A stretch of 51,093 nucleotides of DNA, from the NCBI GenBank assembly GCA_902558095.1, contig CACECP010000001.1:154050-205142 (forward strand). Reading direction: 5' to 3'. The notes under the pieces were generated by a model. The model was not told where the DNA came from, ran no database searches, and was given only the letters and a program-made list of their open reading frames with translations. This document shows positions 9,254 through 34,495 of this stretch, one piece after another. A program made the position numbers and the translations under genes. How positions within the stretch are numbered: position 1 is the stretch's first letter; every line of letters begins with the position of its first letter. The DNA comes from an uncultured SAR86 cluster bacterium. GTDB taxonomy: Bacteria > Pseudomonadota > Gammaproteobacteria > Magnimaribacterales > D2472.

Positions 9254-9307
9254 TTTTTTAAATAATAAGGCAAGTTAAAGTCTTGCCTTATTAAAATTTT
9301 ATAAAGA

Positions 9308-14504: not shown

Positions 14505-14591
14505 ATTATTTATAAAAAATATTTTACGCTGCAAATGTTATCATTTGTGTTAAGAATATAAAACTTTTAGGTAACATCTAGTTTCAAAAAA

Positions 14592-17355: not shown

Positions 17356-18505
17356 CTTTTAACTCAATTTTAATTTCACCTGAAATTTTACTATTTTCAT
17401 TAATTGTATTCTCATCGATGATGTTTACATTAAATCTATCAACAGTATTCTTAACTACTTCATATTGCATTTTAGGTAATTCTAATAAATTTAAAGTTGC
17501 CTGATTTAATTTAATATCAATTTCAACAGATTCTATATACTTCTCACCCAAGGAAATTAAAAAGCCATAATTTTGAAATTTTGATTTATTTTTTGAAGGT
17601 TGTAACTTTGATGATCCGGGTATTTGTTCAATTAATTGGTCAATTTGAATCTTTGGGGTGACAATTCTATTTGTATTTTTATCAATCATTTTAAAAATAT
17701 TAAATATTTCAGTTTCATAAATATCAATCTGCTTATTGTTTTGAGCAATAAGGATATACGGTAAAGCAACTAATGAAGTTAACATCAAAAGACATACATA
17801 AAGCTCAACTTTAGAAAAATTAAACTTATTAAAAATATTTTTAAATGAGAATTCAAACCTAAAAAGATTTGGCAGATTGTCGTTCATTGATAAGAAAAAT
17901 TGTTCAATAGAACCGCCTTTGCTGTTTTTATAACCCCCAAGTTCTTTTATTGGTATATTGGTAAAAACATTAGGTTCAAAATTAATATATTTCGATTCAA
18001 CCATTTCTAGATATTGTGTTAATGATTCAAAATCTGTTGAAGAGCCAGTCCCATCAGCAAATGAAAACAGAAAACTATTATTGAATTCAGTAATAGTATT
18101 GATATCAATATTCTTATTTAAAAAATAATCAGGTACTAAAATTACTTTGCACTTTAATTTATTAAGAGAAGTATTAAGCGCTTTATACAATTCTTTGTTA
18201 ATTACAAACCCAACATTATCAAATATAAAAAATTCATTCTCAGACACATCATTAACAATGAATCCATCAACCTCTGACATAAAATTTGCAATATTGTTTT
18301 GTTCTGATAATTTTTTATTTTTTTTAAAAGGGTAGCTTCCTACAATCGATGAGGGTATTAGGTAAATTAATTTATCCTTGTATGTAAGTGATAAAAAGTC
18401 ATCTAAATCATTATAATTATTTGATTTTTTATAATTATCAGAGTTTTTATGATATTTTCCATAATTAAAATCTAAATTATCTGGATATGCTATAAAAGTA
18501 TTCAT
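17348..18505 (-). CDS. gspL: T2SS assembly-platform protein GspL
   Basis: This 385-residue protein has a long cytoplasmic actin-like domain (residues 1-235), one membrane helix near 240-258 (YVCLLMLTSLVALPYIL) and a periplasmic ferredoxin-like part to the end. This is GspL topology. GspL anchors the ATPase GspE to the membrane. The ATPase-like domain is strongly diverged, as usual. The start overlaps the gspK stop by one base. Confidence 0.83.
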   Translation of the reverse strand: MNTFIAYPDNLDFNYGKYHKNSDNYKKSNNYNDLDDFLSLTYKDKLIYLIPSSIVGSYPFKKNKKLSEQNNIANFMSEVDGFIVNDVSENEFFIFDNVGFVINKELYKALNTSLNKLKCKVILVPDYFLNKNIDINTITEFNNSFLFSFADGTGSSTDFESLTQYLEMVESKYINFEPNVFTNIPIKELGGYKNSKGGSIEQFFLSMNDNLPNLFRFEFSFKNIFNKFNFSKVELYVCLLMLTSLVALPYILIAQNNKQIDIYETEIFNIFKMIDKNTNRIVTPKIQIDQLIEQIPGSSKLQPSKNKSKFQNYGFLISLGEKYIESVEIDIKLNQATLNLLELPKMQYEVVKNTVDRFNVNIIDENTINENSKISGEIKIELKDE

Positions 18506-19473
18506 TATATTCCATTATAGATTCTTGAAATAATAAAACCATTATTATTGTCTTCATAAATTATTATACTTTTCGAAGAAGATACAAATTCGTTAAAGTT
18601 AATTTCTGAGTTAAGCTCAAAAATATTTGATTTAAATATAATATTACCGTGAACATCTTTTAAATCTAAGTCAGGAAAACTGCTTACAAAATTATTTAAA
18701 TCATCAAAGCCTGATTTAGGAATATTATCTAAAATATACTCAGCATCCTTTATGGTTAAGTTTGAAAAAATAGAACTTAATAAATATGCATCTTCTAAAT
18801 CTAATGTATTAATATTTAAAGATAAGTCATTTAGTTTTGGTATTGCACAAAAATGATTTTTAAAAATATTCCAATCTATTTGTTTTACAGCGGGTATGCT
18901 CTTTAATTCTTCAATTGAAACCATTAATCTCATGCCTGTATATTCTCTTGGACTATGTAATGGACCTGAATAGTAATAATCCTCAAGTCCATAAGCTCTA
19001 GGGTTTGCATCTTTATCAATCCAATCAATAATTTGATCAATTACCTCTTCAATAATGTTATTGTCTATTTCATTAAAAGATAAAATTTTTTTAAATGCAG
19101 CTGATGTTTTTTTATTTTCAATATAGTCATCATCATTTAGGCTAACAATTGAATTAATATTGAAACAATTTCCATAATCTGAAATCTTTCCAATAATTTC
19201 AGCTCCATTTATGTTAAATACTATTGGCTCATTAATAATTGGATTATCTTTTGTTAGCTTTTTTGAATTAAACCTCAACTCTTTTTCAATCTTATCTTGC
19301 GCTAAAGATTCAATGTTACGGAAGATATTTAATGATAACGTTTGAAATTCAATATATTGAGCTCTTTTAAGAGATAAAAGATATTTATTGCCAAATAAAA
19401 CAGCAACTGAAGACAACAATAAAACTATTAATAAAATTGATATTAAAACAACGCCTTTATCTTTTGAATACAT
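18505..19473 (-). CDS. gspK: T2SS minor pseudopilin GspK
   Basis: This roughly 322-residue protein starts at the ATG giving MYSKDKG, so that the prepilin cleavage site Gly-Val follows a short leader; a start 19 codons upstream would give an unlikely long leader. After cleavage the helix is VVLISILLIVLLLSSVAVLF. Position +5 is Ile, not Glu, the known exception of GspK, which caps the pseudopilus. The large globular domain, including DWIDKDANPRAYGLEDYYY, is typical of GspK. Its start overlaps gspJ by 17 nt. Confidence 0.88.
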   Translation of the reverse strand: MYSKDKGVVLISILLIVLLLSSVAVLFGNKYLLSLKRAQYIEFQTLSLNIFRNIESLAQDKIEKELRFNSKKLTKDNPIINEPIVFNINGAEIIGKISDYGNCFNINSIVSLNDDDYIENKKTSAAFKKILSFNEIDNNIIEEVIDQIIDWIDKDANPRAYGLEDYYYSGPLHSPREYTGMRLMVSIEELKSIPAVKQIDWNIFKNHFCAIPKLNDLSLNINTLDLEDAYLLSSIFSNLTIKDAEYILDNIPKSGFDDLNNFVSSFPDLDLKDVHGNIIFKSNIFELNSEINFNEFVSSSKSIIIYEDNNNGFIISRIYNGI

Positions 19474-20050
19474 AATCAATATTTGGTTCAATAATCCATA
19501 TATACTCTTTGCCACTCTTTTTGAATTCAAGCTTTATTAAAGTTGGTATTTGTCTTTCCGTAATTGGGCTAACTGGCCATCTGTCATACCAACTTCTTTC
19601 ATGCATGAATTTAATATCTAAATCAGATATTTCCTCTATAAAATTTGATTTTATACTTTCATCACTGTTGTAAGGGTTGGATGAAAAAAATTGCTTTCGA
19701 ATAAGCATATTATCATCTAGCACATATTCAATTCTTTTAATCGGTGATATTTCATTAGAGATAGATTTTATTTTAGAATTAAATAAGATTCTTTTATCAA
19801 TATTACTTCCTGAGAATGTACCTTTAATATTGTTCCCATAATAATCTCGTAATGGCACATTTATTATTTGTCTTAAATCCCTTCTTAAAATTATAGATGA
19901 AAAATTTAATGCACTAGCTGATTGTAATCTCTCAGATGAAGTGCGTTCTGTCTCTAAAGAAGATTGAAGAATGTTTGATGTAATAATAGTTATCATTGAA
20001 AGAATAACTAATGAGACTAATACCTCTATTAACGTAAAACCTTTACTCAT
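19457..20050 (-). CDS. gspJ: T2SS minor pseudopilin GspJ
   Basis: This 197-residue type IV-like prepilin has the leader MSKG followed by FTLIEVLVSLVILSMITIIT, with the conserved Glu at +5. The size and the C-terminal region with WIIEPNIDYVFKR fit GspJ. Minor pseudopilins I, J and K form the tip complex of the pseudopilus. It overlaps gspI by 4 nt (ATGA type), indicating coupling. Confidence 0.87.
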   Translation of the reverse strand: MSKGFTLIEVLVSLVILSMITIITSNILQSSLETERTSSERLQSASALNFSSIILRRDLRQIINVPLRDYYGNNIKGTFSGSNIDKRILFNSKIKSISNEISPIKRIEYVLDDNMLIRKQFFSSNPYNSDESIKSNFIEEISDLDIKFMHERSWYDRWPVSPITERQIPTLIKLEFKKSGKEYIWIIEPNIDYVFKR

Positions 20051-20415
20051 TTTTTATAAAGACCTTTTATTGAGTAGATATATGTTTTTTCATTTTCAAG
20101 CCTTACAAAAATTTCATATTCAAAAAAGTCATCACTAGCCCCATTATTAATAGTCTCATTCCACTGCCATTTTTGGCCTCCCATTACCATTTCACCACTT
20201 CTCTCTGTTGGCTTTAATGATTTTTCTAGTGTATGTATCAAAGAGATGCGATTATTTGCAACCTCTTTAGCTAAATATCTTTGTTCTAGTTCATAACTTG
20301 ATACAGATGTTGATATAATTAAATTATAAATTGTAATTACAGATACACTCAATATAAATAGTGAAACCACTACCTCTATCAAACTAAATCCTTTCTTAAT
20401 ATCTGATAACTTCAT
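20047..20415 (-). CDS. gspI: T2SS minor pseudopilin GspI
   Basis: This 122-residue prepilin has leader MKLSDIKKG followed by FSLIEVVVSLFILSVSVITI, Glu at +5. The motif AKEVANNRI in the region after the helix matches the GspI signature. GspI nucleates the pseudopilus tip with J and K. Its start lies within the 3' end of gspH. Confidence 0.87.
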   Translation of the reverse strand: MKLSDIKKGFSLIEVVVSLFILSVSVITIYNLIISTSVSSYELEQRYLAKEVANNRISLIHTLEKSLKPTERSGEMVMGGQKWQWNETINNGASDDFFEYEIFVRLENEKTYIYSIKGLYKK

Positions 20416-20905
20416 TGATTACTTTTCCATTATTTTTTATAACTATTCTTTGGATATAGTCATTATGATAAATGTCTATTTCTCCTCCTGAATTTTCACC
20501 TGAAGGATAAAAAATCATTAAAGGAGAATCTCTTTGAATTTCATCGATTCTAGTTATAGTTCCATCTTCAAATCTAAATGTCATCCTTAAAGACGTTATT
20601 TCATTTAAGAATGAATTATCGAAATCATAATCTATTTCTTTTTTTTCGTTATCGAATATATAGTTTGCAAATTGTTTGTTTGAGTTTAGATGCCAGCCAA
20701 TTATATTCCCAGTAACAATACTTTCTTCTGTTAAGAAATTTACTGATTTTTCAAATGAATTAATTTTAGAATCTACAGATTTAAGTGTGCTAAAGTTTAA
20801 TGTAATAAAAGTGGTTGAAATGCCTATAATAATTAATACGACAATTATTTCTATTAAGGTATAGCCTTTTTGATATTTGTTACTATTGCATCCAGTTTCC
20901 AACAT
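20396..20905 (-). CDS. gspH: T2SS minor pseudopilin GspH
   Basis: This roughly 169-residue prepilin starts at the ATG giving MLETGCNSNKYQKG, which places the cleavage site before YTLIEIIVVLIIIGIS with Glu at +5. The longer frame upstream overlaps the gspG coding region and adds no family sequence. The beta-rich remainder, with MIFYPSGENSGGEI, fits GspH, which carries such FxPxG motifs near the end. It overlaps the gspG end by 23 nt. Confidence 0.82.
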   Translation of the reverse strand: MLETGCNSNKYQKGYTLIEIIVVLIIIGISTTFITLNFSTLKSVDSKINSFEKSVNFLTEESIVTGNIIGWHLNSNKQFANYIFDNEKKEIDYDFDNSFLNEITSLRMTFRFEDGTITRIDEIQRDSPLMIFYPSGENSGGEIDIYHNDYIQRIVIKNNGKVINEVIRY

Positions 20906-21314
20906 CAGCATCCTCGCCTGTACCTCCCTCAATACCATCCGCGCCGAGGGTATAAAGGTCATATTTTAATGATCTTCTTGAAGGATATTCATATATATAC
21001 TCTCTCCCCCATGGATCTTCAGGTATTGAAGAAATATAGCCTCCCTCAGGATACAAGAGTGGATTCTTTAATTCAGAATGTGGTTTAACCAAGGCATCTA
21101 GACCTTGAGATGTTGTAGGATAAGATAATTCATTAAATCTATAAATTTCTAATGCTTTATTTATGTTAGCCATATCTGCTCTAATTTTTTCAAAATTAGC
21201 TCTTTGGAAAACAGGGCTCACATTAACTATGACTACAGTTGCCAAAATTCCTAAAATAACAAGAACTGCCATAAGCTCTACAAGGGTGAATCCTTTTGTT
21301 GTATTTTTTCTCAT
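20883..21314 (-). CDS. gspG: T2SS major pseudopilin GspG
   Basis: This 143-residue protein has leader MRKNTTKG followed by FTLVELMAVLVILGILATVV, Glu at +5. The C-terminal half shows the GspG signature (YPTTSQGLDALV, DPWGREYIYEYP, and the calcium-site region LGADGIEGGTGEDADVGNW). It forms the shaft of the pseudopilus that pushes substrates through GspD. The length is standard. Confidence 0.96.
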   Translation of the reverse strand: MRKNTTKGFTLVELMAVLVILGILATVVIVNVSPVFQRANFEKIRADMANINKALEIYRFNELSYPTTSQGLDALVKPHSELKNPLLYPEGGYISSIPEDPWGREYIYEYPSRRSLKYDLYTLGADGIEGGTGEDADVGNWMQ

Positions 21315-22501
21315 ATAGCTAATGTATTCATTTGCATAATTGGTATTAGTATAGCTAGAACAATGAGTAATACAAAACCACCCATAATAATTATTACAGC
21401 CGGTTCAAGTAATGACAAAAATATGGACCTTTTCTTTTCGATTTCAGATTTCATAAAGTGTGAAACTTTATTAAACATTGTAATCAAATTTCCAGACCTA
21501 TAACCACTTGAAACTAATTGGATAAAAATATCTGGGAATATATTATATTTCTTTAGTGTATTAATAAAATCCTTGCCCTCTCTTACATCGTTATTAGAAT
21601 TAGTAATAATATTTCCTAAATATTTATTATTAAAAACTTTAGTTGACTCATCTAAAGCTATATCAAGATTAGAGCCTGATGCAAGAAGGAGTTCCATGGT
21701 GCTAGCAAATCTTTCAAGCTCAGAGTTTAATAAAAAATTTCCAACGAAAGGGATTTTTAGCATTTTCTTATGTGCTTTTATTTTATTATTTTTATTTTTT
21801 ATATAATTTTTATACAAATAATAAATTGCAATCCAGACCAATAAACATATTGAAATAATTAGAACTATATTATTAGAAATGCCTAAAAGTAACTTTGTTA
21901 TAAATGGCAAATCTGCTCCAGCTTTTACAAATTGATTTATTACTTGTGGTAGAACAAAAGTAAGTAAAGAGACTATTACAATAATAGAAAACCCTATTAA
22001 AATTAAAGGATATGTCATAGCCGATGTAACCTTTTGCCTGATCGATGCTGTTTCTTCAAGATAGTCTGCTAATTTAGAAAAAACTACATCTAGATTTCCT
22101 GATGAATCTCCTGCAGACACCATAGAGATGTATGTACTAGAAAATACTTCTGGAAATTTCTTCATTGAATTGCCAAGTCTTTTACCTTGAATAATATCTT
22201 CTTTGAGATTAAAAATTACATATATAAGATTTTTATTTTTTAATTGGCTTGCTGTTATTTCTAAGGCATCAACAATCGGGGTATTTGCATCTAAAAGAAT
22301 AGATAGTTGTCTAGTCATTACAACAATGTCTTTATTTTTAACTTTTAATTTTTTTCCAGTATTTTTTGATTCAGATACTTTTAGAGGTGTTAAATGAATT
22401 TCTTTAATCATTTTTCGAGCTTCTCTTTCAGAGTCAGCGCTAAGAATGCCTTTCTTTTTTACACCTAGCTCATTTATAGCTATATAACTAAATGCCGGCA
22501 T
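21311..22501 (-). CDS. gspF: T2SS inner-membrane platform protein GspF
   Basis: This 396-residue polytopic protein opens with MPAFSYIAINELGVKKKGIL and has two T2SSF domains (about residues 60-185 and 260-385) and three membrane helices near 165-190, 210-230 and 365-390. The motif MVSAGDSSGNLD in the first domain is characteristic. GspF is the rotor-like centre of the assembly platform. It overlaps gspE by 14 nt and gspG by 4 nt. Confidence 0.95.
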   Translation of the reverse strand: MPAFSYIAINELGVKKKGILSADSEREARKMIKEIHLTPLKVSESKNTGKKLKVKNKDIVVMTRQLSILLDANTPIVDALEITASQLKNKNLIYVIFNLKEDIIQGKRLGNSMKKFPEVFSSTYISMVSAGDSSGNLDVVFSKLADYLEETASIRQKVTSAMTYPLILIGFSIIVIVSLLTFVLPQVINQFVKAGADLPFITKLLLGISNNIVLIISICLLVWIAIYYLYKNYIKNKNNKIKAHKKMLKIPFVGNFLLNSELERFASTMELLLASGSNLDIALDESTKVFNNKYLGNIITNSNNDVREGKDFINTLKKYNIFPDIFIQLVSSGYRSGNLITMFNKVSHFMKSEIEKKRSIFLSLLEPAVIIIMGGFVLLIVLAILIPIMQMNTLAI

Positions 22502-23987
22502 CTTCTTTAATGTTATTGACTCTAATTATTTCTTCACAAGATGTAACACCATCTAAAATTAGCCTTACTGATGCCTTATCAATGGAATGATTGTCTTTAA
22601 AGACATAATCAGATATTTCATTTTCTGATGCCTCATTGTGAATAAGATTTTTTAGTTTTTTATCAACCTGTATGCATTCTGCAATTGCAATTCTGCCCTG
22701 ATATCCTGTGCCATTACAATGATCACACCCTACAGGATAATATACATCTTGAGATTTATTTAATTTAAATAACTCTGCTGATTCAGGCGAAATCTTTTTT
22801 TTATTTTTACAATGGGAGCATAGTCTTCTTACCAATCTTTGAGAGATAATTGTTTTTAAACTTGATGCCAATAAAAATGATTCAATTCCCATATCTCGCA
22901 ATCTGGTGATAGCTGCAACTGCGCTATTTGTATGAACTGTTGATAGTACTAAATGTCCGGTTAGACTTGATTGAATGCCTATTTGAGCTGTTTCAATATC
23001 TCTCATCTCCCCAACCATTACTACATCTGGATCTTGTCTGAGGATTGCTCTTAGACCTTTTGCAAAAGTATATCCAGTTTTTGTGTTTACTTGAGTCTGT
23101 CCAATGCCATCTAGAGTATATTCAATTGGATCTTCAACTGTAAGAATATTCTGGGATGAATCACTTAAATACCTTAAACCTGCATATAAGGTTGTTGTTT
23201 TACCAGAGCCTGTAGGGCCAGTGAACAAAATAATTCCTTCAGGATCTTTCAATGAAGATTTATAATTTGATAAAATTTTTGTAGGTAATCCTAAATCATC
23301 AATATTAATTTGTGCAGACTGTTTGTCTAAAATTCTTAAAACAATTCTTTCACCATGCGAAGAAGGTAGTGTTGAAACCCTTACATCTACACTTTTATCT
23401 CCAAGAGATAATGAAACTCTTCCATCTTGAGGTAGTCTTCTTTCTGAAATATCAAGACCTGAAATAATTTTTATACGTGATATTAAAAATGATGCTATCT
23501 TACTATCCTGTCTTAGAATCTCTTTTAAAATACCATCTACTCTAAAACGAATCTTTATATGATTTTCATATGGTTCAAAGTGAATATCAGACGCCCTACT
23601 TTTAATTGCTTGACTAATAATTCCATTTATTAATTTGATTATTGGAGCATCATTATTGCCACTCAACAAATCTTCAGTAGCGGTAATACTTCCAGCAAAA
23701 TCTTGAAGATCAAATTCATCAGATAATTCATCAGTTATGTCATTATTGTGATTTGTTGATGAAAATGAGTTAGTTAATATTTCATTAAAGTATTCAGAGC
23801 TACATATTTCATACTTAAAATCTGACTTTAAAAATCTTCGAATTTCGTGATAAAGGGTTATTGTTAATTTGTATGGTGATAAAGCTAAATAACCATGTTC
23901 TGTTTCAGAGACTATTACTTCATTTTCTTTTACAAAATCATAAGGCAGGATATCTGTCTTATAGTTTTCAGCCTCAGTTTCAGACAT
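22488..23987 (-). CDS. gspE: T2SS ATPase GspE
   Basis: This 499-residue secretion ATPase has an N-terminal domain (1-100) and a RecA-like core with Walker A GPTGSGKT (257-264), the Asp box ILTVEDPIEY (281-290), Walker B region QDPDVVMVGEMRD (318-330) and the His box TGHLVLSTVHTN. A four-cysteine zinc motif is present (CSHC ... CDHC). It powers pseudopilus assembly in the cytoplasm, docked on GspL. It begins 2 nt after the gspD stop. The family length and all motifs are intact. Confidence 0.97.
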   Translation of the reverse strand: MSETEAENYKTDILPYDFVKENEVIVSETEHGYLALSPYKLTITLYHEIRRFLKSDFKYEICSSEYFNEILTNSFSSTNHNNDITDELSDEFDLQDFAGSITATEDLLSGNNDAPIIKLINGIISQAIKSRASDIHFEPYENHIKIRFRVDGILKEILRQDSKIASFLISRIKIISGLDISERRLPQDGRVSLSLGDKSVDVRVSTLPSSHGERIVLRILDKQSAQINIDDLGLPTKILSNYKSSLKDPEGIILFTGPTGSGKTTTLYAGLRYLSDSSQNILTVEDPIEYTLDGIGQTQVNTKTGYTFAKGLRAILRQDPDVVMVGEMRDIETAQIGIQSSLTGHLVLSTVHTNSAVAAITRLRDMGIESFLLASSLKTIISQRLVRRLCSHCKNKKKISPESAELFKLNKSQDVYYPVGCDHCNGTGYQGRIAIAECIQVDKKLKNLIHNEASENEISDYVFKDNHSIDKASVRLILDGVTSCEEIIRVNNIKEDAGI

Positions 23988-23989
23988 AC

Positions 23990-25837
23990 TTATTCATTCT
24001 TTTCAGTAAGATCTATTACTTCTTTTTTTTCGTCTAGCTCTTGTTGAGCCTTTATAAAATTATACTTCTCTAAAGATACTGCTTGTGCTGTACTTGAATC
24101 TATTAAAATTGTTGGTTTTAAAAATACCATTAAGTTCTTCTTACTAGTGGTCGTTGATGAAGACTGAAATAGTTTTCCTAATAATGGTATTGATCCAAGT
24201 ATGGGCACTTTAGAGACAACTTCTTGGACATCTTCGTCGATCAAACCACCTAATACAATTATTTGATTATTATCTACCAAAACTGTGGTTTCAATTTCTC
24301 TCTTATTAGTTATTAAATCAGTTCCGCTTTGTGCTACACCTGCAATGCCAGATACACCTTGTTTAATATTTAATATTACAGAGGTACCTTCATCTATCTG
24401 AGGAGTTATTTCTAATTCAATACCAACTTCTTGACGAGAAGTTGTTCTAAATGGATTTGAATTATTTGTACCAAGACTTTCTCCAGTGGTAATTGGTATT
24501 TCTTGACCAATAAATAATCTCGCTGGCTCATTATCCATTGCTAATATTGATGGTGTTGATAATATGTTTGAATCTGTATCAGAAGCTATTGCATTTATTA
24601 TTCCAACAAAATTATTTTCTCCGGATGTCATGTCACCAAATCCAGCCACTAAACCTTGAGTATTTAACAATGAAGAAACTGCTGTTGTTGTAAGTGTGAC
24701 ATTTGTATTATCATCTGATGCTCCAGCTATACTAAGAAGATCAGGACCTGTACCAGAAAATCTCGTTACTCCAATGGGTATACTTTCATCATCGCCACCA
24801 GTATAAATAGTTTCTACTCCAAGTGATTTGGCTGCTTTTTCAGACAAATCAACAACAATAGCCTCCACTAAAACTTGAGCCCTTCTAATATCAAGTTTTG
24901 CGATAATATTTTTTATAGAATTTAGATTTTCTTCAGCAGAAGAAATAATTAGAGAGTTTGTTTTCTCGTGATGTGTTATGACAGTCTTTGATCCTTCTGT
25001 TTCACTCACAAATGTGCTTGCTATTGAGCTAAGAATAGATGCAACATCCTGTGCTTTAGCATATTTTAAATAAATAACATCTGTAGTGTCGTTATTTGTA
25101 ATATCTTTATCAAGACTATTAAGTGTAGACTTTATGTTTTTAGCAACAATTTCGTTTGAGGATAAAATTACTGAATTTGATGGAGTAAATGGTATTGCAA
25201 CAAAATTATTAATTGTTGGATTATTCTGTGATTTAAGTTTATCTAATATCCTTACAGCCTCTATTGAAGAAAGATTGTCGAGCTTAATAGTTGTAATCTT
25301 GGCAACATTATTTTTATCTAAGTCTCTTAGTAAATTTTTAATTCTCTGAACATTACTAGAGCGATCTACGAGAAGAATAGAGTTTACTGAGGGGATGCTA
25401 GACAAATGAGCTTGCCTTCCTGTGATAGGCTTAATCATTGGCAAAATTTCTCCTGTAGACCTATTATTTAATGGAATTACTACTGTCTCAAAATCACCAG
25501 ATGAATAATCTAAGGTTTTATCTCTGGTAGCCTCGTTTTCAGGAATAACTCGAAGGAAACCATCTTCAGAAATAGTACTGAATCCATTTACCTGTATTGT
25601 TCTTAAATATACATTCCATACTTGATCTCTATCTAAATTAGCATTTGAATATATTGTTACCTTTCCTTTTACTCTTGGATCTAAAATGATTGTTTTTTTG
25701 GAAAACTGAGCAATGTCCTGAGTTACTTTTTTTATATCAACATCTTCATAATTTAATATAAAGGTATCTTGAGCACTAAGATTATTAAAAGAAATTAAGA
25801 AGAATAAAATAAAAAATTTTTTCATTGATATGTTCAT
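23990..25837 (-). CDS. gspD: T2SS outer-membrane secretin GspD
   Basis: This 615-residue protein has a signal peptide (about 1-22, ending NNLSA), N0-N3 periplasmic repeats (N0 from VDIKKVTQDIAQFSKKTIIL) and the C-terminal secretin barrel (IPITTGES near residue 445, then EVGIELEITPQI and VPILGSIPLLGKLFQ). It forms the outer-membrane gate. An ATG four codons in (MKKFFILFF) is an equally plausible start. No GspS pilotin gene is seen in the window. It starts 3 nt after the gspC stop. Confidence 0.96.
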   Translation of the reverse strand: MNISMKKFFILFFLISFNNLSAQDTFILNYEDVDIKKVTQDIAQFSKKTIILDPRVKGKVTIYSNANLDRDQVWNVYLRTIQVNGFSTISEDGFLRVIPENEATRDKTLDYSSGDFETVVIPLNNRSTGEILPMIKPITGRQAHLSSIPSVNSILLVDRSSNVQRIKNLLRDLDKNNVAKITTIKLDNLSSIEAVRILDKLKSQNNPTINNFVAIPFTPSNSVILSSNEIVAKNIKSTLNSLDKDITNNDTTDVIYLKYAKAQDVASILSSIASTFVSETEGSKTVITHHEKTNSLIISSAEENLNSIKNIIAKLDIRRAQVLVEAIVVDLSEKAAKSLGVETIYTGGDDESIPIGVTRFSGTGPDLLSIAGASDDNTNVTLTTTAVSSLLNTQGLVAGFGDMTSGENNFVGIINAIASDTDSNILSTPSILAMDNEPARLFIGQEIPITTGESLGTNNSNPFRTTSRQEVGIELEITPQIDEGTSVILNIKQGVSGIAGVAQSGTDLITNKREIETTVLVDNNQIIVLGGLIDEDVQEVVSKVPILGSIPLLGKLFQSSSTTTSKKNLMVFLKPTILIDSSTAQAVSLEKYNFIKAQQELDEKKEVIDLTEKNE

Positions 25838-25840
25838 ATA

Positions 25841-26239
25841 TTATTTACCTACAATATTCTTAATTTTATATAACTTTTCGTTGTTACGAAATATAACTTC
25901 ATCTTTACTAACCTCTACTAATTCGTATATGCCCTGTAATTTTTCACCTTTAGCAACGACAAATTCTTTATTACCCTTTTTAACAACAACAGATGAGTCG
26001 CTCTCACCATATCTATAACCAATCAACTTATAATCAAAAGCTTGGATATTTTCAGGATTTTTTGGTTGATCTTCTATAAAATTTTTATCTAAATTAAAGG
26101 TTAAATCAGTCATATCTGGAATGCTTATATTTTTAATATCAGGTCTGTTGGTAATTGAAATTAATAAATACACTATTAAAGTAAATACAGGTACTGATAA
26201 TATTAACAAGAAAATTTTTTTTATTTTAATAAAGTTCAT
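25841..26239 (-). CDS. gspC: T2SS component GspC, short form without PDZ domain
   Basis: This 132-residue bitopic protein has an N-terminal helix (about 8-28) and a periplasmic homology region (YKLIGYRYGESDSSVVVKKG ... VAKGEKLQGIYELVEV) that in GspC contacts the secretin N0 domain. It ends at residue 132, so the usual C-terminal PDZ or coiled-coil part, thought to help choose substrates, is absent. It is the first gene of the gspC-M operon, and a terminator-like hairpin lies just upstream of its ATG. Confidence 0.85.
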   Translation of the reverse strand: MNFIKIKKIFLLILSVPVFTLIVYLLISITNRPDIKNISIPDMTDLTFNLDKNFIEDQPKNPENIQAFDYKLIGYRYGESDSSVVVKKGNKEFVVAKGEKLQGIYELVEVSKDEVIFRNNEKLYKIKNIVGK

Positions 26240-26289: not shown

Positions 26290-28921
26290 TTAAAAACTAA
26301 ATTTAAATCCCAAAGATACTGAAGTGCCAAGGTTGTATTGATCATATATTACAGTATCAGCCATAGCAGCATAATATTCTTCATCAAGAATATTTCTTAA
26401 CTCAAGTGATATCTTTAGATCAGAGTCATTACTGCCATACGATAGTGTTTTAGAATAAACAAAATCAACCAAAAGTGGTGGTTCCTCATATATATCTGGA
26501 AGAACATCAATACCCCTTGCTCTAACTCTATCGCTAACATAATTAAATATAAGCGTTCCTTGAGTGCCATTTTGTAAATCGTCCCATCCAAGTTGAAGAT
26601 TCGCAATTTCTTCAGATTGCCCTTGAAGTCTTGTATCTCTTCCATTTGCAAACAAGCTAGCAGCGTTAACTTCTCTTCCTTGTGTATTTATATAAGTATC
26701 CGTATCACTGTAAATTACTTCAGAATCAGTAGCAGTAAAATTCATTTTTAAAATAAATTCCTTAGTACTAGCCCATTTTGAATTAGGTAATAGATCTTCA
26801 TAAATTCTTTCATATTCAATTTCAAAACCAGTTACTTCAGCTGAAGGTACATTTTGATATGAAGTAATAATTAAGTCACCAGATTCATTTACAACTTCTT
26901 CAATTGGTTTTGAAATATCTTTATAAAATAATCCTGCTGTTAAGAACTGATTAAATCCCCAATAATACTCAACTCTTAAATCAATATTATCAATTTCAGA
27001 GTTTTCTAGATATAGTGAACCTGATATAACCCTATCAGTATCGACATCAATAAATAGTGTTGGAGATAGCTCCCTAAATGTTGGCCTGGCGATAGTTTTA
27101 GAAACACCAAATCTAATTTGAAGGTTTTCATCAAAGTCAGGTAAGTAAGTTAATGTGAAAGAGGGTAAGGTGTAGTTTTCATCAATAATCTTTTCTATAT
27201 TATTATCAACCCTTTGGAATACATCATAAGTATTTACCATTTGCTCACCATCTTCATTTCTTACACCAGCTCCCAATCTAAAGTTTTCATTTAAATAAGC
27301 GTCTAAGGTGATATAAAAAGAGGATATTTCTAAGTCACCCTGATAACCTGCAGGTGATGAAGCTGCGGTATTTTCGATTAAAATTAATCTTGATGGATCA
27401 AAATTCTTATCCTCAAATATATAATCAATCCTATTATTTAGTCCATCAGATGGTATTGGTCCACCTTCGGCTAAGAATCTATAACTTCTAACCTGTGCAT
27501 CTCGATAGTTATTTGATTGATCAAACCCTGTCTTTATAATTACCTCCTGATCTCCAAGTTCTAATGGGAATGTTAAATCAATACCAAAATTCTCATTATT
27601 ATCATTTACGTAACTAAACTGTGTTTGATTTCTGCCAGTGTTTACATCATATTGCCAAAAACCTCTATCGTCAGTATCTTCATAGAAGACAACTCTTTCA
27701 TATGGTGCATATCTTGAAGCATCACCACCAGCAAGTCTTACATCAAGCTCCATATCATTTTGAAAAATATAATTATAATTAAGTTGATGATTTGTAAGCT
27801 CTCTTTCAAAAAACTCAGTAAAATCCTCTCTTACATTTCCTGAATCAGAGGTATCATATCCTTGAAGAGTTCTTGCCTCTTTAGTACCTTTATGTATATA
27901 CATGCCAGTATATTTTAGTTCTGCTGTATCTGTTTCAATGCCAGCAACAGCCATAAGATAGGTAGTAACATTATTTGAGGTTGATTTAAATGTCTTATCA
28001 TTACCTCTTATTACTATTGAAGTGCCATCTCCTTGACCTTGAATATCACCAGTTTGTCTGATTCCTTCTTGAGTTTCCCATGAGCTTTTTACGCCAGCTG
28101 TAAGAAGAACACCGATAGTTGCAGATTCATCATCAAGAATATCTTCAATGCCTATATCTAGTTCATCCCCATAAGTGAAACTTACCGAGTTATCCAAAGG
28201 CACATCACCTTCTTGAATAACCCAAAGTTCTGAATTAACAAACTCTCGACCTGCATTTGCAAGCTCGTAAGTTTTGAAATTTGACCTATCGAGCTTTTGA
28301 TTACTATTAATTGCTCTTTGAACATATGATGGAAAATCTCTTGTGCCATCATCATATCCTAGATCATCATCACTCCCACCATCGTATAAAAGACCATCTG
28401 ATAAAGATGTTTCGGCATTGTATCGTGAAGAAAATGAAAAATCTAAAATTCTCTCTGAAGGAACAGCTTTAGTATTAATTTCTATAATACCTCCTCCAAA
28501 TTCACCTGGCATGTCTGCAGAGTATGTTTTTTTGAACAATTGACGATTCGATTAGCTGAGTTGGAAACAAATCCAAAGGAACTACTCTTTTAAGCGGCTC
28601 TGGACTTGGAAGACCTGAACCATTTAAAGTTGCAGCAGAATATCTCTCACCAAGACCTCTAACATAAACATATTTCCCTCTAACAAGGCTTAAACCTGTT
28701 AATCTTGTTAAAGCAACTGCAATATTATCATCACCAGTCCTTTCTATTTCACTTGAGTCAAGGATTGCAGAGATCTCAGATGTATCTCTTTTTTCATCTG
28801 GAATAAAGGAACCACTTACAACAACTTCTTCGATTTCTTGAGATACGATCAAAGTTGAAAAAAGTGAGAATCCAATAATAAAGTTGTACTTAAGAAAATC
28901 TACTATTTTTTTTGATTTCAT
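26290..28921 (-). pseudogene. TonB-dependent receptor interrupted by a one-base frameshift
   Basis: Two frames together encode one receptor of about 876 residues. The first has a signal peptide, EIEEVVVSGSFIP, and plug motifs ([15 protein letters not shown]). The second resumes with KTYSADMPGEFGGGIIEIN and continues through the barrel to a terminal Phe. The break is in a run of seven T on the plus strand (28527-28533); six would join the frames exactly as VQKTYSADMPGEF. This may be a sequencing error, phase variation or real loss. The ATG at 28921 has GGAG 6-7 nt upstream. It follows the surface lipoprotein gene by 33 nt and precedes the T2SS genes, so it likely imports a nutrient bound or released at the surface. 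Confidence 0.85.
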
Positions 28922-28954
28922 TAATCTCTCCAATAAATATTTATTTAGTTAACC

Positions 28955-31918
28955 TTATTGGACTTCTATAGTTCCAGATAACGTCCAGTTTTTATACCAA
29001 GTATCAGTAGCGCCACTTACAGCTCCTATATATGTTGGTGTCGTAAACCAGCTATCTGCATTATATGCATCTGGTATTGCTGTGACAGTCACTGCTGACT
29101 CTGCAGTACCATTAACGACTCCTGTAAGTGTATTCACATATGTTCCACCGCCTGAATTAGCGCCATAGAGGTTGTTGGAACCAGCTTTTACAATTGCATC
29201 GACTTGAGCAATTGATGCACCGCCCGCTGACGAATCTGTTTTGATATAACCAGGACAATCCATAGCAACGGAATTCATTGAGAATGTTGGTGTAACTGCT
29301 CCTGCTTGAACTGTTTCTAAGAAAGTTGTTTCAATACAATTAGTTGTTTTCCCAGTAACAGCATTATTTACTATGGCTACACCGTTTAGATATTGACCTG
29401 AAACACCTTCTTTTAGTTTAAATACATCATCAAATCCTTTTGAAATAAAAGTAAAGTTTGAAACAACTGCATTTGATCTTGGTTCAGTTAAATAACCAAC
29501 TGCCGCATCAGCATTTGTGTTATCAGATTCTACAATATGATCGCCTTTATCATTGGATTGTTGGACAATTACATATTGAAGTCTTCCTTGATAACCCCAA
29601 TCTATATCCAAGTTATCATCATCGGCACCTGTGCAAATGAGATACTTAACATCAACAGTTCCACCAAAGAATTCAACACAGTCATCGGCATTATTATGGA
29701 CTTGAATATATGAAACATCTGTTCCACTACCAACACCACCAAAAGTAATACCGTTTAATTCATTACCAGGAAAAACCTCATAACCTGCATATTGAACTCT
29801 AAGATATTTTAGAGTGCCACTGCTATCATCTGGGATTTCTCCACCCATGGTGTCTCCTACTGAGCCTTCAACATCTTTCTCACATGGATCCACTCTCACT
29901 CCTGCTGTAGTAGAAGTTCCAGCAGTTGAATATGTACATTTATTAATTGGTGACTTTCCAAGCAAAACTAAACCGCCCCATAAACCTCTTGTATTAACAA
30001 TATCTGCTTCTCCAAGAATATCTTGTCTTCCAGTCATTATTATTGGTGCAGATGACGTTCCAACCGCATTTAATTTAGAGCCTCTTGTTACAACAAGGTA
30101 GTCATTTCCTGACTCACCAAAAACTGTTACTCCTGGTTCAATAGTTAATGTCGCGCTGTCTCCACCGGACTTAGTCCCATCTGAACCCATATCGACTCCA
30201 ACAGCAACTTTGCCATCAAGTTTGTAGTAATTACCTGCAACAAGAGTAAGATCCTCCGTTACAACTCCAGAAATACTACATACTTTTCTTCCTAAAAGAA
30301 CTTCAGATTCTAGGGTACCAGCTGGACATTCTGGATCAGTAAATAATCCAAGTGTCCAACCGGAAGCCCAGTTATTTTCTATATCTGAACCGGGGGAAAA
30401 GGCTCCTATATAGTTTGTGGCAGAAAACCAAGTATCAACAATATATCGTCCTTCTTTCGAACTATAAGTAGGACATAAGTCTGTTGGTGTTCCTGCAGCT
30501 TGTGGTCCAACTGCACACATTCCTTGGACCTTTGTAACATCAAAAGAAGAAGTAACTGCACTTTCGTTATCGCCTAAAAAGAATCCTGAAACAAGAGTAT
30601 TTGTTCCAATTACTAAATCTGTTGCTCTTTCTTTAATAGAGGCTTCTAATTGAGCAGCTGTAACTCCACTTGCGTCAGTGTCAGCCTTAAAAGGTGATGT
30701 ATCACCTCCAGCATCCATAAATACAGAATGATGCTGAATTTTTGGAGTTAGAGCTCCATCTTGAATAGTTTCAATATTGGTAGATTCAATAAGATTTTGT
30801 GATACATTATTTTTTACAATACCATTTATATATATACCAGAGACACCCTCTTTATATTTTAATGGCTCATCAGCACCTTGAGCCAAAAATGTAAAATTAG
30901 CTACCATAGGGCGTGATCTTGGTTCTGTCAGATAACCAACTGAGCTATCTGAATTAGTATTATCTGATTCTACTACGTGATCACTAGCGTCTGAGGACTG
31001 TTTAACAACTACAAATTGCATTTTTCCTTGATATCCCCAATCTATATCCAAGTTATCATCTCCAGCATTAGTACAAATCAAATGCTTAACATTTACAGTG
31101 CCGCCGAAAAACTCAACACAGTCATCTTGATTATTATGTACTTGAACAAAATCAACTTCAGTGGCGTCACCAACACCACCAAAAGTTATTCCGTTTAACT
31201 CATTACCTGGAAAAATCTCATATCCTGCGTATTCAACTCTAACAAAATTTAATTTACCTGAATTATCATTCTTATTAGCTCCACCCATTAATGCGCTTGA
31301 TCCCTCAACGACTTTTTCACAAGCTGCAGTTCCTCTTACATCATTTGAACATTTATTTATTGGAGCTTGGCCTAAGATAACTATACCGCCCCATAAACCT
31401 CTTTCTAATTCACCAACTGTTCCTTCAATTGCAGTATTATGTGTAAATCTAATCGGTTTTGATTGTGTACCATTAGCTATTATTTTTGATCCTCTATTTA
31501 CAACAAGATAATCCTGGGAAACTTTTCCTAAGATTACTGCATTAGCAGGTATTGTTAATGTGGCTGAAACACCATCAGGGTCTGTTCCGTCACCACCCAT
31601 ATCGACTCCGACGTCAACTTTTCCAAGCATTCTATACATGACGTCGTCTGTTAGAGTAAGATCACTTGTAATCGGTCCTTGAATTGCACAAACAGTATTT
31701 CCAGCAACTGGGGATCCATTTGTGATAAAAGGTGAATCTGGACACGTTCCAGTTCGAACATTACTTCCAGCGCCGCCGGACCCGCCACCACCAGTAGGAT
31801 CACCTAAAGAGCCTAATTCACCAGGTGATGCAATACTTGTATCACCCCCGCCACCGCAAGCTACAAGTATAAAAGCAGATAAAAATAATGTGGTTTTCTT
31901 GATAGATTTAAAAAACAT
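28955..31918 (-). CDS. Large surface lipoprotein with duplicated domain (possibly ElpS-like)
   Basis: This roughly 987-residue lipoprotein starts at ATG 31918 behind a strong GGAGGG site. Its lipobox is ILVAC followed by Gly-rich linker; Gly at +2 favours the outer membrane. The rest is two copies of a roughly 450-residue unit, each with ATLTI, DYLVV.RGSK, RGLWGG(I/L)V(I/L)LG, PGNELNGITFGGVG, DDCVEFFGGTV, DNLDIDWGYQG and VESDNTN, suggestive of a beta-helix-like repeat fold. The family is known next to TonB receptors, and its biochemical function is unknown to me. Position beside PhoBR, a receptor and a T2SS recalls Caulobacter ElpS, a phosphate-starvation lipoprotein released in a T2SS-dependent way; actual homology is unverified. 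Confidence 0.8.
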   Translation of the reverse strand: MFFKSIKKTTLFLSAFILVACGGGGDTSIASPGELGSLGDPTGGGGSGGAGSNVRTGTCPDSPFITNGSPVAGNTVCAIQGPITSDLTLTDDVMYRMLGKVDVGVDMGGDGTDPDGVSATLTIPANAVILGKVSQDYLVVNRGSKIIANGTQSKPIRFTHNTAIEGTVGELERGLWGGIVILGQAPINKCSNDVRGTAACEKVVEGSSALMGGANKNDNSGKLNFVRVEYAGYEIFPGNELNGITFGGVGDATEVDFVQVHNNQDDCVEFFGGTVNVKHLICTNAGDDNLDIDWGYQGKMQFVVVKQSSDASDHVVESDNTNSDSSVGYLTEPRSRPMVANFTFLAQGADEPLKYKEGVSGIYINGIVKNNVSQNLIESTNIETIQDGALTPKIQHHSVFMDAGGDTSPFKADTDASGVTAAQLEASIKERATDLVIGTNTLVSGFFLGDNESAVTSSFDVTKVQGMCAVGPQAAGTPTDLCPTYSSKEGRYIVDTWFSATNYIGAFSPGSDIENNWASGWTLGLFTDPECPAGTLESEVLLGRKVCSISGVVTEDLTLVAGNYYKLDGKVAVGVDMGSDGTKSGGDSATLTIEPGVTVFGESGNDYLVVTRGSKLNAVGTSSAPIIMTGRQDILGEADIVNTRGLWGGLVLLGKSPINKCTYSTAGTSTTAGVRVDPCEKDVEGSVGDTMGGEIPDDSSGTLKYLRVQYAGYEVFPGNELNGITFGGVGSGTDVSYIQVHNNADDCVEFFGGTVDVKYLICTGADDDNLDIDWGYQGRLQYVIVQQSNDKGDHIVESDNTNADAAVGYLTEPRSNAVVSNFTFISKGFDDVFKLKEGVSGQYLNGVAIVNNAVTGKTTNCIETTFLETVQAGAVTPTFSMNSVAMDCPGYIKTDSSAGGASIAQVDAIVKAGSNNLYGANSGGGTYVNTLTGVVNGTAESAVTVTAIPDAYNADSWFTTPTYIGAVSGATDTWYKNWTLSGTIEVQ

Positions 31919-31948
31919 AATATGTCCCTCCAAGGAATATATGTATGT

Positions 31949-31970
31949 ATTAGAAAATATATCCGTTACA
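31949..31970 (-). promoter_or_regulatory. Weak Pho-type promoter candidate for the lipoprotein gene
   Basis: On the minus strand TGTAACG (31964-31970) lies 9 bases before a -10-like TCTAAT (31949-31954). Another TGTAACA sits at 32007-32013, inside the 3' end of phoR, in a loosely phased run of TGA/TGT units. This is suggestive only. Confidence 0.25.
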
Positions 31971-32037
31971 TGGTATTGAATTTGATGAAAAATAAATCAA
32001 CAAAAATGTTACAAATTATTTCAAGTTTGTTTCAAAT

Positions 32038-33807
32038 TTATGAATTTTTTAAAGGCAAAGTAAACCAAAATATTGACCCATTAGGATATGTATTTTTTAT
32101 TCCAACCTCACCATTTAAGTTATTTACAAGATTTTTTACAATTGCAAGGCCTAGACCACTTCCTTTTTCGTCAGTTGCTCTCGCATCAGCTGTTCTATAA
32201 AACCTGTCAAATAAAAAATCTTTCTCTTGATCAGGAACACCCCTCCCGTTATCTTTTACACTGACTTCTAGATAGTCTTTTATTTTTCTTGTTGAGATAT
32301 TTATTATTGATTCAGGGTCAGAATACTTAAAAGCATTTTCAATTAAGTTATTTAAAATTCTTTCAAGGGCATTTTTATCTGCAAGAACAATTTTATCTTT
32401 AGAGCAAGAACACTCTATAGATATATTTTTTCTTTTACCTAGATTTTTAAGAGAATCTATAGCGTTATTAATACAATCGTTTATGGAAAGTTCTTCAATA
32501 TTTAGTTTTAGCTCTCCATAATCAATTCTAGATAAATCAAGTAATGAAGATACCATATCGCTAAGTCTTTCAGCGTTATGTAAAATAGCCTTTGCAAAGA
32601 CTTTTGCCTGTTTTTTGTCTTCAAGAGCTCCATCGACGAGAGTTTCAGAATTTGCCATGATAACACTTACAGGCGTTCTTAACTCATGAGAAACATTTGA
32701 TATAAAATCTCTTCTCATAGAGCTAAATCTTCTAAGTTGAGTAATATCGTGAACAACCAAAATAAATTCTTTTGTAGTTTTAGATTGATTCATTGTTGCA
32801 AGAACCCATCTAGTGCTTTTATCTTTTAACTCGATTTCAAATTCAATGTCAGCTCTTTTTTTCTTTTTTGCCCTCTTTAGTAAATAATTTAATGATTTTA
32901 TATCTAAGTCTGTAATTTTTTTTCCTACTAATTCATTTTTATTTAAGATTAATGAGACTTGTTCATTTTCATATGTGATATTGCCACTTATATCAGCGAC
33001 CATGATACCCTCTCCTAAATCATCTAAGACTGAACCAAACTGGTCTCTTTGTTTGGCAATTAAATTGATTTTAGATTTAAGCTCCTCTGAAATTTGTGAA
33101 ACACTTTGTGCAACATTGCCAAATTCATCAGTCCTCTGAGTAGGAAGTGCTTTTATGTCTTTGTTTTTTGCCTTTCCATCTGCATCTGCAATTTTTGAAG
33201 TTGCATCAGCTAAATCCGCAATACTTCTGTAAGCATAATTTGCAGCTATACCAGACGCTATTGATGTAACAATAAAAGCAACTAAAGCAATTAAAATTAT
33301 AGAAAGATTTAAACTTTCTATTGCAGAATCAACATTTACATATGGAACTGCTATTCTAATAACATTTGGACTCACATCATTATTATCTAGAATAGCATAA
33401 TACATTTGCTGTTGTTCTACGGTATCGCTATAACGAATTGACCAGCCTCTTCCATTTTTAAAAGCTTCTTGAACCTCAGGTCTATTAATATGATTATCTA
33501 AATTATTAATATTTTGAGTGTCTACATCTGAGTCACCAATTACTCTCCCATCAGATAATATAAGTGTTATTCTAGAATTTGATGCACTCCCAAGCCTATC
33601 AGCTAAAGAATCAGCTTCATTGAGATTTTGAATAGAGTTAACTTCATCAACAACCTCTACAAGAAGAGATGCTTGATTTTGTAACTCATTAATAATATGC
33701 TTTTGGAATGTATCAGTGATATCTCTTTCTGCAATAATGTATGAAACAAAAATACCTAATCCTAGAGATATGAATATAATTAAAAATAATCGGGATCCTA
33801 TTCCCAT
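32038..33807 (-). CDS. phoR: Sensor histidine kinase, PhoR-like
   Basis: This 589-residue membrane kinase has helix 1 (about 6-26), a roughly 140-residue periplasmic sensor region, helix 2 (about 168-190), a HAMP linker and a PAS domain (LDDLGEGIMVADISGNITYE, near 262). HisKA follows with the phospho-acceptor SNVSHELRTP, then an HATPase domain with N, G1 (DNGRGVP) and G2 (GSGLGLAIVKN) boxes. It starts 4 nt after phoB. The pairing with a PhoB-like regulator and nearby phosphate genes supports the PhoR call, but the large periplasmic domain is unusual for enterobacterial PhoR, so another signal is possible. Confidence 0.75.
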   Translation of the reverse strand: MGIGSRLFLIIFISLGLGIFVSYIIAERDITDTFQKHIINELQNQASLLVEVVDEVNSIQNLNEADSLADRLGSASNSRITLILSDGRVIGDSDVDTQNINNLDNHINRPEVQEAFKNGRGWSIRYSDTVEQQQMYYAILDNNDVSPNVIRIAVPYVNVDSAIESLNLSIILIALVAFIVTSIASGIAANYAYRSIADLADATSKIADADGKAKNKDIKALPTQRTDEFGNVAQSVSQISEELKSKINLIAKQRDQFGSVLDDLGEGIMVADISGNITYENEQVSLILNKNELVGKKITDLDIKSLNYLLKRAKKKKRADIEFEIELKDKSTRWVLATMNQSKTTKEFILVVHDITQLRRFSSMRRDFISNVSHELRTPVSVIMANSETLVDGALEDKKQAKVFAKAILHNAERLSDMVSSLLDLSRIDYGELKLNIEELSINDCINNAIDSLKNLGKRKNISIECSCSKDKIVLADKNALERILNNLIENAFKYSDPESIINISTRKIKDYLEVSVKDNGRGVPDQEKDFLFDRFYRTADARATDEKGSGLGLAIVKNLVNNLNGEVGIKNTYPNGSIFWFTLPLKNS

Positions 33808-33811
33808 TTAT

Positions 33812-34495
33812 CTAGTCCGGTGATCTTGAAAATTTATAGCCAACGCCTCTAATAGTTTGAACATATTTACCCATTGGTCCAAGTTTTTCTCTAAGGCGTT
33901 TTATGTGGGTATCAACAGTCCTTGTTGTAATTTCTGCGCTGTAACCCCAAACATCAGAAAGCAACTGATCTCTAGATTGAACTCTTCCTCTTCTATCAAC
34001 AAGGTGTCTCAACAATCTAAACTCTAAAGCTGTTAAGTCTATTTCATCATTATTGACATATACTTCATGTGATTCAATATCCATACTTAGATCACCAAAT
34101 TGGCGCTCAACTTCAACAACTTCTTTTTTTGTTTGCCCTCTTTTTAAAATAGCTTTTATTCGAAGAATCAACTCTCTTACACTAAATGGTTTAGTAACAT
34201 AATCATCTGCACCTAATTCAAATCCAACTACCCTATCAACCTCATCATCTTTTGCAGTTAAAATAATTATTGGAATAGATTCTGTTTTTGAATTAGATTT
34301 AAATTTTTTGCAGAGATCAAGACCCGAACCATCAGGAAGCATTAAATCTAAAAGTATTAATGATATCGAGGTCGAATTAACAATTTCTTCAGATTCAGAC
34401 AAGGAACCTGCGGTTATGACATCGAAACCCTCACGAGAGATATTATATTTGAGGTTTTTTCTAATATCAGGTTCGTCTTCAACAATTAAAATCAT
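33812..34495 (-). CDS. phoB: Response regulator, PhoB-like (OmpR/PhoB family)
   Basis: This 227-residue regulator has a receiver domain with phospho-acceptor D50 (LILLDLMLPDGSG) and K102 (DDYVTKPFSVRELILRIKA), the PhoB-like form. A winged-helix DNA-binding domain follows, with LTALEFRLLRHLVDRRGRV and RTVDTHIKRLREKLG then TIRGVGYKF. Sequence alone cannot fully separate PhoB from other OmpR-type regulators; linkage to a PhoR-like kinase and PHO-box-like repeats in the window favour PhoB. It would activate phosphate-starvation genes. Confidence 0.78.
   Translation of the reverse strand: MILIVEDEPDIRKNLKYNISREGFDVITAGSLSESEEIVNSTSISLILLDLMLPDGSGLDLCKKFKSNSKTESIPIIILTAKDDEVDRVVGFELGADDYVTKPFSVRELILRIKAILKRGQTKKEVVEVERQFGDLSMDIESHEVYVNNDEIDLTALEFRLLRHLVDRRGRVQSRDQLLSDVWGYSAEITTRTVDTHIKRLREKLGPMGKYVQTIRGVGYKFSRSPD

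What the first reader, a model, noticed from the sequence alone, without database searches (positions are those of the whole stretch)
28955..34495. PhoBR, surface lipoprotein, TonB receptor, T2SS order resembles the Caulobacter ElpS system
In Caulobacter crescentus phosphate starvation induces the surface lipoprotein ElpS, whose gene lies beside a T2SS and whose release needs that T2SS. Here a two-component pair is followed by a 987-residue surface lipoprotein, a TonB receptor and gspC-M, all on one strand. A phosphate-driven surface capture and release system is a sensible inference, with the lipoprotein binding or processing a phosphorus source.
Basis: partly seen in the sequence, partly recalled or inferred. 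Interest (0 to 1): 0.8.

Follow-up and report, generated by a model that had tools for sequence, protein, structure and literature searches.

The report
ElpS-type phosphate surface lipoprotein locus
A small-genome bacterium carries a doubled version of a surface lipoprotein that Caulobacter makes when phosphate runs out, set beside its own phosphate-type regulator and a secretion system, in a block that related species seem to swap together with part of the regulator's sensor.

Summary
On the minus strand lie a PhoB-like regulator, a PhoR-like kinase, a 987-aa lipoprotein, a TonB receptor and a type II secretion system. The lipoprotein is a sequence homologue of Caulobacter ElpS: the ElpS of C. 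vibrioides T5M6 matches it twice (E 2e-76, 1e-69) and has the same elpS-receptor-gsp order, an order already published (PMC2996285). So this is a known kind of system in a new setting. New here: the regulator pair is attached and no PhoU was found in 60 relatives; a phosphorus island surrounds it, with phytase within 24 kb of gspD in 28 of 28 genomes holding both on one contig; and elpS plus receptor behave as a cassette between phoR and gspC. In the genus, 9 of 9 readable elpS+ kinases carry an outside Cache-like sensor and 13 of 14 readable elpS-lacking ones do not. Codon identity shows that the block recombines between species, so the link may be physical rather than functional. Phosphate induction, surface display, release and ligand are untested. 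The window's receptor gene is frameshifted; relatives have it intact.

The parts
33812..34495 (-). PhoB-like response regulator (227 aa)
   Evidence: Pfam Response_reg and Trans_reg_C; best NCBIfam model PhoB, 244.7 bits, below its cut-off 296.2; only TIGR02154 match in the held genome.
32038..33807 (-). PhoR-like histidine kinase (589 aa) with an extracytoplasmic Cache-like sensor
   Evidence: HisKA, HATPase_c, PAS; PnpS 294.3, PhoR 230.7 bits, both below cut-off; sensor matches PF16736 at 24.6 bits, cut-off 27.
28955..31918 (-). ElpS-type lipoprotein, two tandem units (about aa 58-525 and 528-987)
   Evidence: Lipobox; both units match C. vibrioides T5M6 ElpS; units 49% identical to each other.
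31919..32037 (-). phoR-elpS intergenic stretch with 11-bp-spaced Pho-box-like repeats
   Evidence: 12 of 14 consensus positions, reached by 22 of 300 shuffles; suggestive only.
28502..28933 (-). TonB receptor, plug part (first frame)
   Evidence: Plug domain E 6e-7; frame ends early, intact in relatives.
26290..28539 (-). TonB receptor, barrel part (second frame)
   Evidence: TIGR01782 E 3e-36.
16912..26239 (-). Type II secretion genes gspC to gspM (last two by position)
   Evidence: GspD 442.2 bits over cut-off 351.35; E, F, G, I, J, K by Pfam; C and H below cut-off.
13257..14534 (-). PHO4-family transporter
   Evidence: PF01384 E 1e-112; below cut-off for both PitA and a CysP-type sulfate permease, so phosphate is by context.
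14592..15431 (+). Polyphosphate kinase 2
   Evidence: PF03976.
15431..16294 (+). Ppx/GppA phosphatase
   Evidence: PF02541.
8168..9253 (-). Phytase (PF02333)
   Evidence: E 2e-54.
9308..11842 (-). Second TonB receptor, beside the phytase
   Evidence: Plug and barrel; TIGR01782 476 bits, over cut-off.

Best explanation
An ElpS-type phosphorus-scavenging surface system attached to the only PhoB-like regulator found in the genome. Under phosphate shortage the kinase, working without PhoU, activates the PhoB-like regulator, which switches on elpS and probably its receptor and the gsp genes (inferred). ElpS is lipidated and sits on the cell surface on a flexible tether (lipobox and glycine-rich tether seen; surface location by analogy with Caulobacter). 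Its two beta-helix units catch a phosphorus-containing compound or polymer and pass it to the TonB receptor beside it (inferred from constant pairing). The secretion system exports phytase and perhaps the protease that frees ElpS (inferred). Homology, gene order and tandem units are shown; no PhoU was found in a 60-genome search; regulation, ligand, cargo and release are not shown.
For: ElpS homology and order; a receptor next to elpS in 78 of 78 named loci with room to see it and gspD within 9 kb in 56 of 68; PhoB-like gene is the only TIGR02154 match in the held genome; PhoU 0 of 60 with 13 of 14 controls ringing; PstC over cut-off in 2 of 60; phosphorus genes around; phytase 3.6-23.9 kb from gspD in 28 of 28 genomes with both on one contig, 27 within 15 kb; slot holds pst or PHO4 with a porin in two relatives; in Caulobacter ElpS is phosphate-starvation induced (PMC2996285) and the T2SS, TonB receptors and a phytase are in the PhoB regulon (PMC11208175 passage).
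Against: Both regulator proteins are below the curated cut-offs. The window's Pho-box-like site is weak, and 4 of 24 other upstream stretches in the window reach 12 or more of 14. In Caulobacter the receptor gene was reported as not phosphate-regulated and its deletion left ElpS production intact, and ElpS reached the surface without the T2SS. In three relatives of another family (L076-L078) elpS and receptor lie away from phoBR and gsp, and in G034 the gsp genes lie on the other side of phoBR. The window's own receptor gene is frameshifted. The genome is 80% complete, so its own missing genes could be gaps.
Confidence: 0.7

Rival explanations
1. ElpS is an enzyme or cargo rather than a capture protein: a beta-helix hydrolase or lyase that acts on phosphorylated polymers and is shed, while the receptor imports the products.
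For: Predicted parallel beta-helix with many polysaccharide lyases, epimerases and tailspikes among the structural matches; ElpS was associated with alkaline phosphatase activity in Caulobacter supernatants (PMC2996285 abstract).
Against: No Foldseek match at E 0.001 or better and the VIA matches are too close together (Z 18.2-22.9) to name an enzyme; the PDB sequence search with the family profile found nothing.
Confidence: 0.2
2. The match between kinase sensor and elpS is only physical linkage: two old haplotypes of neighbouring genes are exchanged by recombination, with no working link between sensor and ElpS.
For: On the kinase-core tree elpS changes only 2 times against 6 on the T2SS tree; codon identity shows block exchange; G037 has elpS with a short kinase and G023, G042, G047, G053 have a long kinase without elpS found.
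Against: Order-wide the association still holds, 18 long and 1 short with elpS against 4 long and 19 short without, but shared ancestry weakens this count.
Confidence: 0.6
3. The two-component pair is not a phosphate regulator but another envelope or nutrient pair.
For: Both proteins miss the PhoB and PhoR cut-offs; no PhoU in 60 relatives.
Against: PhoB is the best model for the regulator, PnpS and then WalK and PhoR for the kinase; Ppx and PPK2 lie nearby in several families of the order; in G040 the same pair lies in a cluster with pst genes.
Confidence: 0.1

Closest known systems
ElpS (cc0170) - cc0171 TonB receptor - gspC-N of Caulobacter crescentus (Le Blastier et al. 2010, PMC2996285; abstract, parts 1 and 2 of 6, and Discussion read)
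   Same: Homologous lipoprotein, lipobox, receptor next, gsp genes after.
   Different: Two ElpS units instead of one of about 50 kDa; phoBR-like genes attached; no PhoU found in relatives; flanked by phytase, PPK2 and Ppx. Two-unit forms are not unique: 9 of 20 phylum-level loci read have two.
PhoBR with PstSCAB-PhoU (proteobacterial scheme, recalled; PhoU and PstC searched here)
   Same: Best model for the regulator is PhoB.
   Different: PhoU 0 of 60, PstC over cut-off in 2 of 60; kinase has a Cache-like outside sensor in this window.
Bacillus subtilis PhoR sensor (PDB 3cwf)
   Same: Best of two weak sequence matches of the sensor profile (E 0.11); B. subtilis is also the one control without a PhoU match.
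   Different: The match is not significant; kinship is not shown.
SusC/SusD-type receptor and lipoprotein pairs (recalled)
   Same: A lipoprotein gene kept beside a TonB receptor gene.
   Different: ElpS is a predicted beta-helix; no comparison with SusD was run.

Membership tests
ElpS system | Sequence homology of the lipoprotein to Caulobacter ElpS | tested here: met
   247 bits, E 2e-76 and 227 bits, E 1e-69 to the C. vibrioides T5M6 protein; single ElpS locus in that genome. The strain is not the CB15N of the paper.
ElpS system | Lipobox | tested here: met
   LVAC in the window; LAGC in T5M6, as the paper states for ElpS.
ElpS system | elpS - TonB receptor - gsp order | tested here: met
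   Window and L141; the window's receptor is frameshifted.
ElpS system | Induced by phosphate starvation | tested here: inconclusive
   Only motif scans: 12 of 14 in the window, 22 of 300 shuffles; the scan also gives just 11 of 14 for C. vibrioides.
ElpS system | T2SS-dependent release from the cell surface | not testable with these tools
   Needs cultures.
PhoB (TIGR02154) | Score over the curated cut-off | tested here: not met
   244.7 against 296.2; 0 of 60 relatives pass, and 2 of 14 controls. Hence PhoB-like.
PhoR (TIGR02966) | Score over the curated cut-off | tested here: not met
   230.7 against 334.2. Hence PhoR-like.
Single-Cache-like sensor (PF16736) | Match of the extracytoplasmic domain | tested here: inconclusive
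   Window 24.6 bits against a cut-off of 27; 12 of 15 aligned sensors match at E 0.1 or better, best 1.2e-7; single-sequence fold unusable, pLDDT 42.
Type II secretion system | GspD over cut-off with further gsp genes in order | tested here: met
   GspD 442.2 over 351.35; E, F, G, I, J, K.

The most novel reading that the evidence does not exclude
The kinase's outside sensor and the ElpS-receptor pair are one sensing-and-uptake unit: with no PhoU to report phosphate flux, the kinase reads a phosphorus compound handled by ElpS and its receptor, so sensor, ElpS and receptor are kept, lost and exchanged together as alternative alleles among species of a streamlined order.
Probability: 0.25. Interest if true: 0.75.

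Novelty: new variant of a known kind. Interest (0 to 1): 0.55.

Why it matters
It ties a little-understood phosphate-starvation lipoprotein, and the secretion system beside it, to phosphorus in a small-genome lineage, and shows a PhoBR-like pair in an order where no PhoU was found. Near-identical neighbours that differ in both kinase sensor and ElpS-receptor cassette are a natural experiment on how bacteria may sense phosphorus without the Pst-PhoU route.

Tried and rejected
Pho-box scan with a consensus recalled from memory. Upstream of 16 elpS genes: 13 of 14 in L062, L065, L066, L068, L072, L073; 12 in the window, L061, L063, L064, L074, L076, L077; 11 in L060 and L067 and 10 in L070, no better than shuffles. 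Of 24 other upstream stretches in the window, 4 reach 12 or more (LIG1, PHO4, 12771, 44933). In 67 named loci 4 reached 13 (0.03 expected), but C. vibrioides reached 11. Kept as suggestive only. The L067 start used for this scan was a guess.

Sequence searches of the lipoprotein in Pfam, NCBIfam and PDB found nothing, and a viral-contig scan none. Fold search: beta-helix, no functional relative singled out; no family is excluded by that. Single-sequence fold of the kinase sensor unusable.

Two-unit ElpS as a novelty: rejected (9 of 20 phylum-level loci). T2SS existing only for ElpS: rejected, since 14 genus genomes without elpS in the slot have phoBR followed by gsp. Papers: PMC12872454 was opened for the term 'elps', which was a DOI string there. 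PMC8371827 passages did not tie T2SS to SAR86. Searches that listed no paper on this arrangement: no hits; listings looked at.

Full report
What is there. The window lies in a 1.09 Mb, 80.3% complete genome. Size and gene content recall SAR86-type marine gammaproteobacteria, but that name is recalled and no call gave it. The minus strand holds a PhoB-like regulator, a PhoR-like kinase, the lipoprotein, a TonB receptor in two frames, and gsp genes. The regulator is the only TIGR02154 match in the held genome at E 0.001.

The lipoprotein is an ElpS homologue. It matches nothing in Pfam, NCBIfam or PDB by sequence. I aligned five unnamed relatives and scanned named genomes: 286 stretches matched a pattern, 152 encode a relative, the best 80 were kept. 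One, L141, is Caulobacter vibrioides T5M6; its protein has the LAGC lipobox that the ElpS paper gives. It aligns to residues 5-531 of the window protein (247 bits, E 2e-76, 35%) and to 530-979 (227 bits, E 1e-69, 37%); the two halves of the window protein are 49% identical. That genome has a single ElpS locus, followed by receptor and gspD, E, F, G. The paper reports the order for Caulobacter and a similar one for Xanthomonas campestris, Sphingomonas alaskensis and Hyphomonas neptunium (PMC2996285). Of the 80 named loci, 78 had more than 1.5 kb downstream and 78 of these had the receptor next; 68 had more than 6.5 kb and 56 of these had gspD within 9 kb. These 80 were chosen by likeness to Caulobacteraceae sequences, so they are not a sample of all ElpS genes. 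In 72 of 73 of them with a complete 5' end and a lipobox, SPG follows within 20 residues of the cysteine, as in the window (ASPGE).

Structure. Unit 2 with 48 relatives gave a right-handed parallel beta-helix (mean pLDDT 83.0, pTM 0.88). Foldseek: no PDB match at E 0.001 (best 0.028). VIA: the 50 rows shown have Z 18.2-22.9 to tailspikes, epimerases, lyases, NosD and others, too close to name a function.

Phosphorus setting. The window also holds phytase with its own TonB receptor, PPK2, Ppx, a MIP channel, a PHO4-family transporter and a GDPD-family phosphodiesterase. The PHO4 protein is below cut-off for PitA and for a sulfate permease. Among 60 relatives gspD was found in 46 and phytase in 38; 33 have both, 28 of these on one contig, 3.6-23.9 kb apart, 27 within 15 kb; 5 have them on different contigs. 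PhoU: 0 of 60, while the search rings in 13 of 14 controls, all but B. subtilis. PstC: 42 of 60 have some match but 2, G040 and G058, pass the cut-off; the window genome's match is 42.2 bits against 196.45. In G040 the slot before gsp holds a porin, a MIP channel, a small phosphatase, a PBP-type binding protein, two permeases and an ABC ATPase, read as pst; in G055 a porin, a PHO4 transporter and a prepilin peptidase. A metatranscriptome paper lists SAR86 among groups transcribing pst and phoBRU genes and pit (PMC12981677, passages); as a group statement it neither confirms nor excludes a missing phoU.

A cassette with its sensor. elpS was found in 25 of 60 relatives. In the genus (34 genomes) 11 have elpS: 9 with a readable kinase, all long, and 2 (G022, G030) cut at a contig edge. 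Of 23 without an elpS match, 14 have a readable kinase: 13 short, 1 long (G023); 9 were not readable. One of these, G017, has the receptor beside gspD at a contig end, so its elpS may just be missing from the assembly. One short kinase, G028, lacks the membrane part as well. In the 14 readable genomes phoR is followed directly by gsp genes. Across the order: with elpS 18 long, 1 short (G037), 6 unread; without 4 long (G023, G042, G047, G053), 19 short, 12 unread. Fisher p is 1.2e-5 for the genus and 3.4e-7 for the order, both too small because of shared ancestry. On a T2SS tree of 23 genomes elpS changes 6 times and the sensor 6 times; of 5 independent pairs on supported branches 4.9 on average agree and none opposes, p 0.0625, and five pairs cannot reach 0.05. 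On the kinase-core tree elpS changes twice. Codon identity explains this: the window and G032 share 79-89% of codons in phoR, elpS and receptor but 49-61% in gsp genes; G019 and G031 share 91-97% in gsp but 52-56% in phoB and phoR. So the block moves between species as one of two haplotypes, and the sensor-elpS match may be physical linkage.

Exceptions to the order. In G034 (another genus) gsp lies on the other side of phoBR; in G041, G044 and G050 (another family) elpS and receptor lie in other stretches than phoBR and gsp (the phoBR-gsp stretches of G041 and G050 were read, that of G044 was not).

The sensor. 12 of 15 aligned sensors match the single-Cache-like family at E 0.1 or better (best 1.2e-7); the window scores 24.6 bits, cut-off 27. 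The better of two weak PDB matches is B. subtilis PhoR, E 0.11. A directly sensing kinase is an inference.

Regulation. The window's Pho-box-like site is weak and the scan is blind to C. vibrioides. In Caulobacter ElpS is induced by phosphate shortage, and the T2SS, TonB receptors and a phytase are in the PhoB regulon (PMC11208175, passages). Against: the 2010 paper found the receptor gene constitutive and ElpS surface display independent of the T2SS.

Verdict. Observation confirmed, interpretation partly supported. The core is a known system; the attached PhoU-less regulator, the phosphorus island, and the exchangeable block of kinase sensor, ElpS and receptor are what is new, the last with its functional meaning open.

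Noticed in passing
window 28502-28540: The TonB receptor changes frame beside a run of A; the plug frame is 148 aa here and 850-1076 aa in 10 of 13 other loci tested. Assembly error or real break not settled.
   Followed up: partly
window 8168-11842: A phytase gene next to its own TonB receptor on the same strand as the gsp genes; a plausible secretion cargo.
   Followed up: partly
window 12771-13199: A 142-aa protein with a likely signal peptide, no Pfam or NCBIfam match, has the best Pho-box-like site of the 24 other upstream stretches tested in the window (13 of 14, 4 of 300 shuffles).
   Followed up: no
L066 15897-18884 (G034): elpS is much more diverged (53% identical codons to the window) than phoR (82-83%) and receptor (82%) on either side, as if elpS alone were swapped or diversifying.
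   Followed up: no
G000-G059 (60 relatives): No PhoU match in any of the 60, though PhoB-type matches occur in 58 of 60 (many of the 58 are weak matches to other regulators).
   Followed up: partly
L115-L194; window aa 25-40: SPG or ASPGE motif just after the lipidated cysteine in 72 of 73 named loci with a complete 5' end and in the window; possibly a sorting or tether signal.
   Followed up: partly
L105 3491-8563 (G185): A PhoB-like (45%) and PhoR-like (34%) pair lies divergently beside a two-unit elpS in another gammaproteobacterial family.
   Followed up: no
window 39793-40647: A prepilin peptidase gene, needed by a T2SS, lies about 5 kb beyond phoB on the other strand.
   Followed up: no
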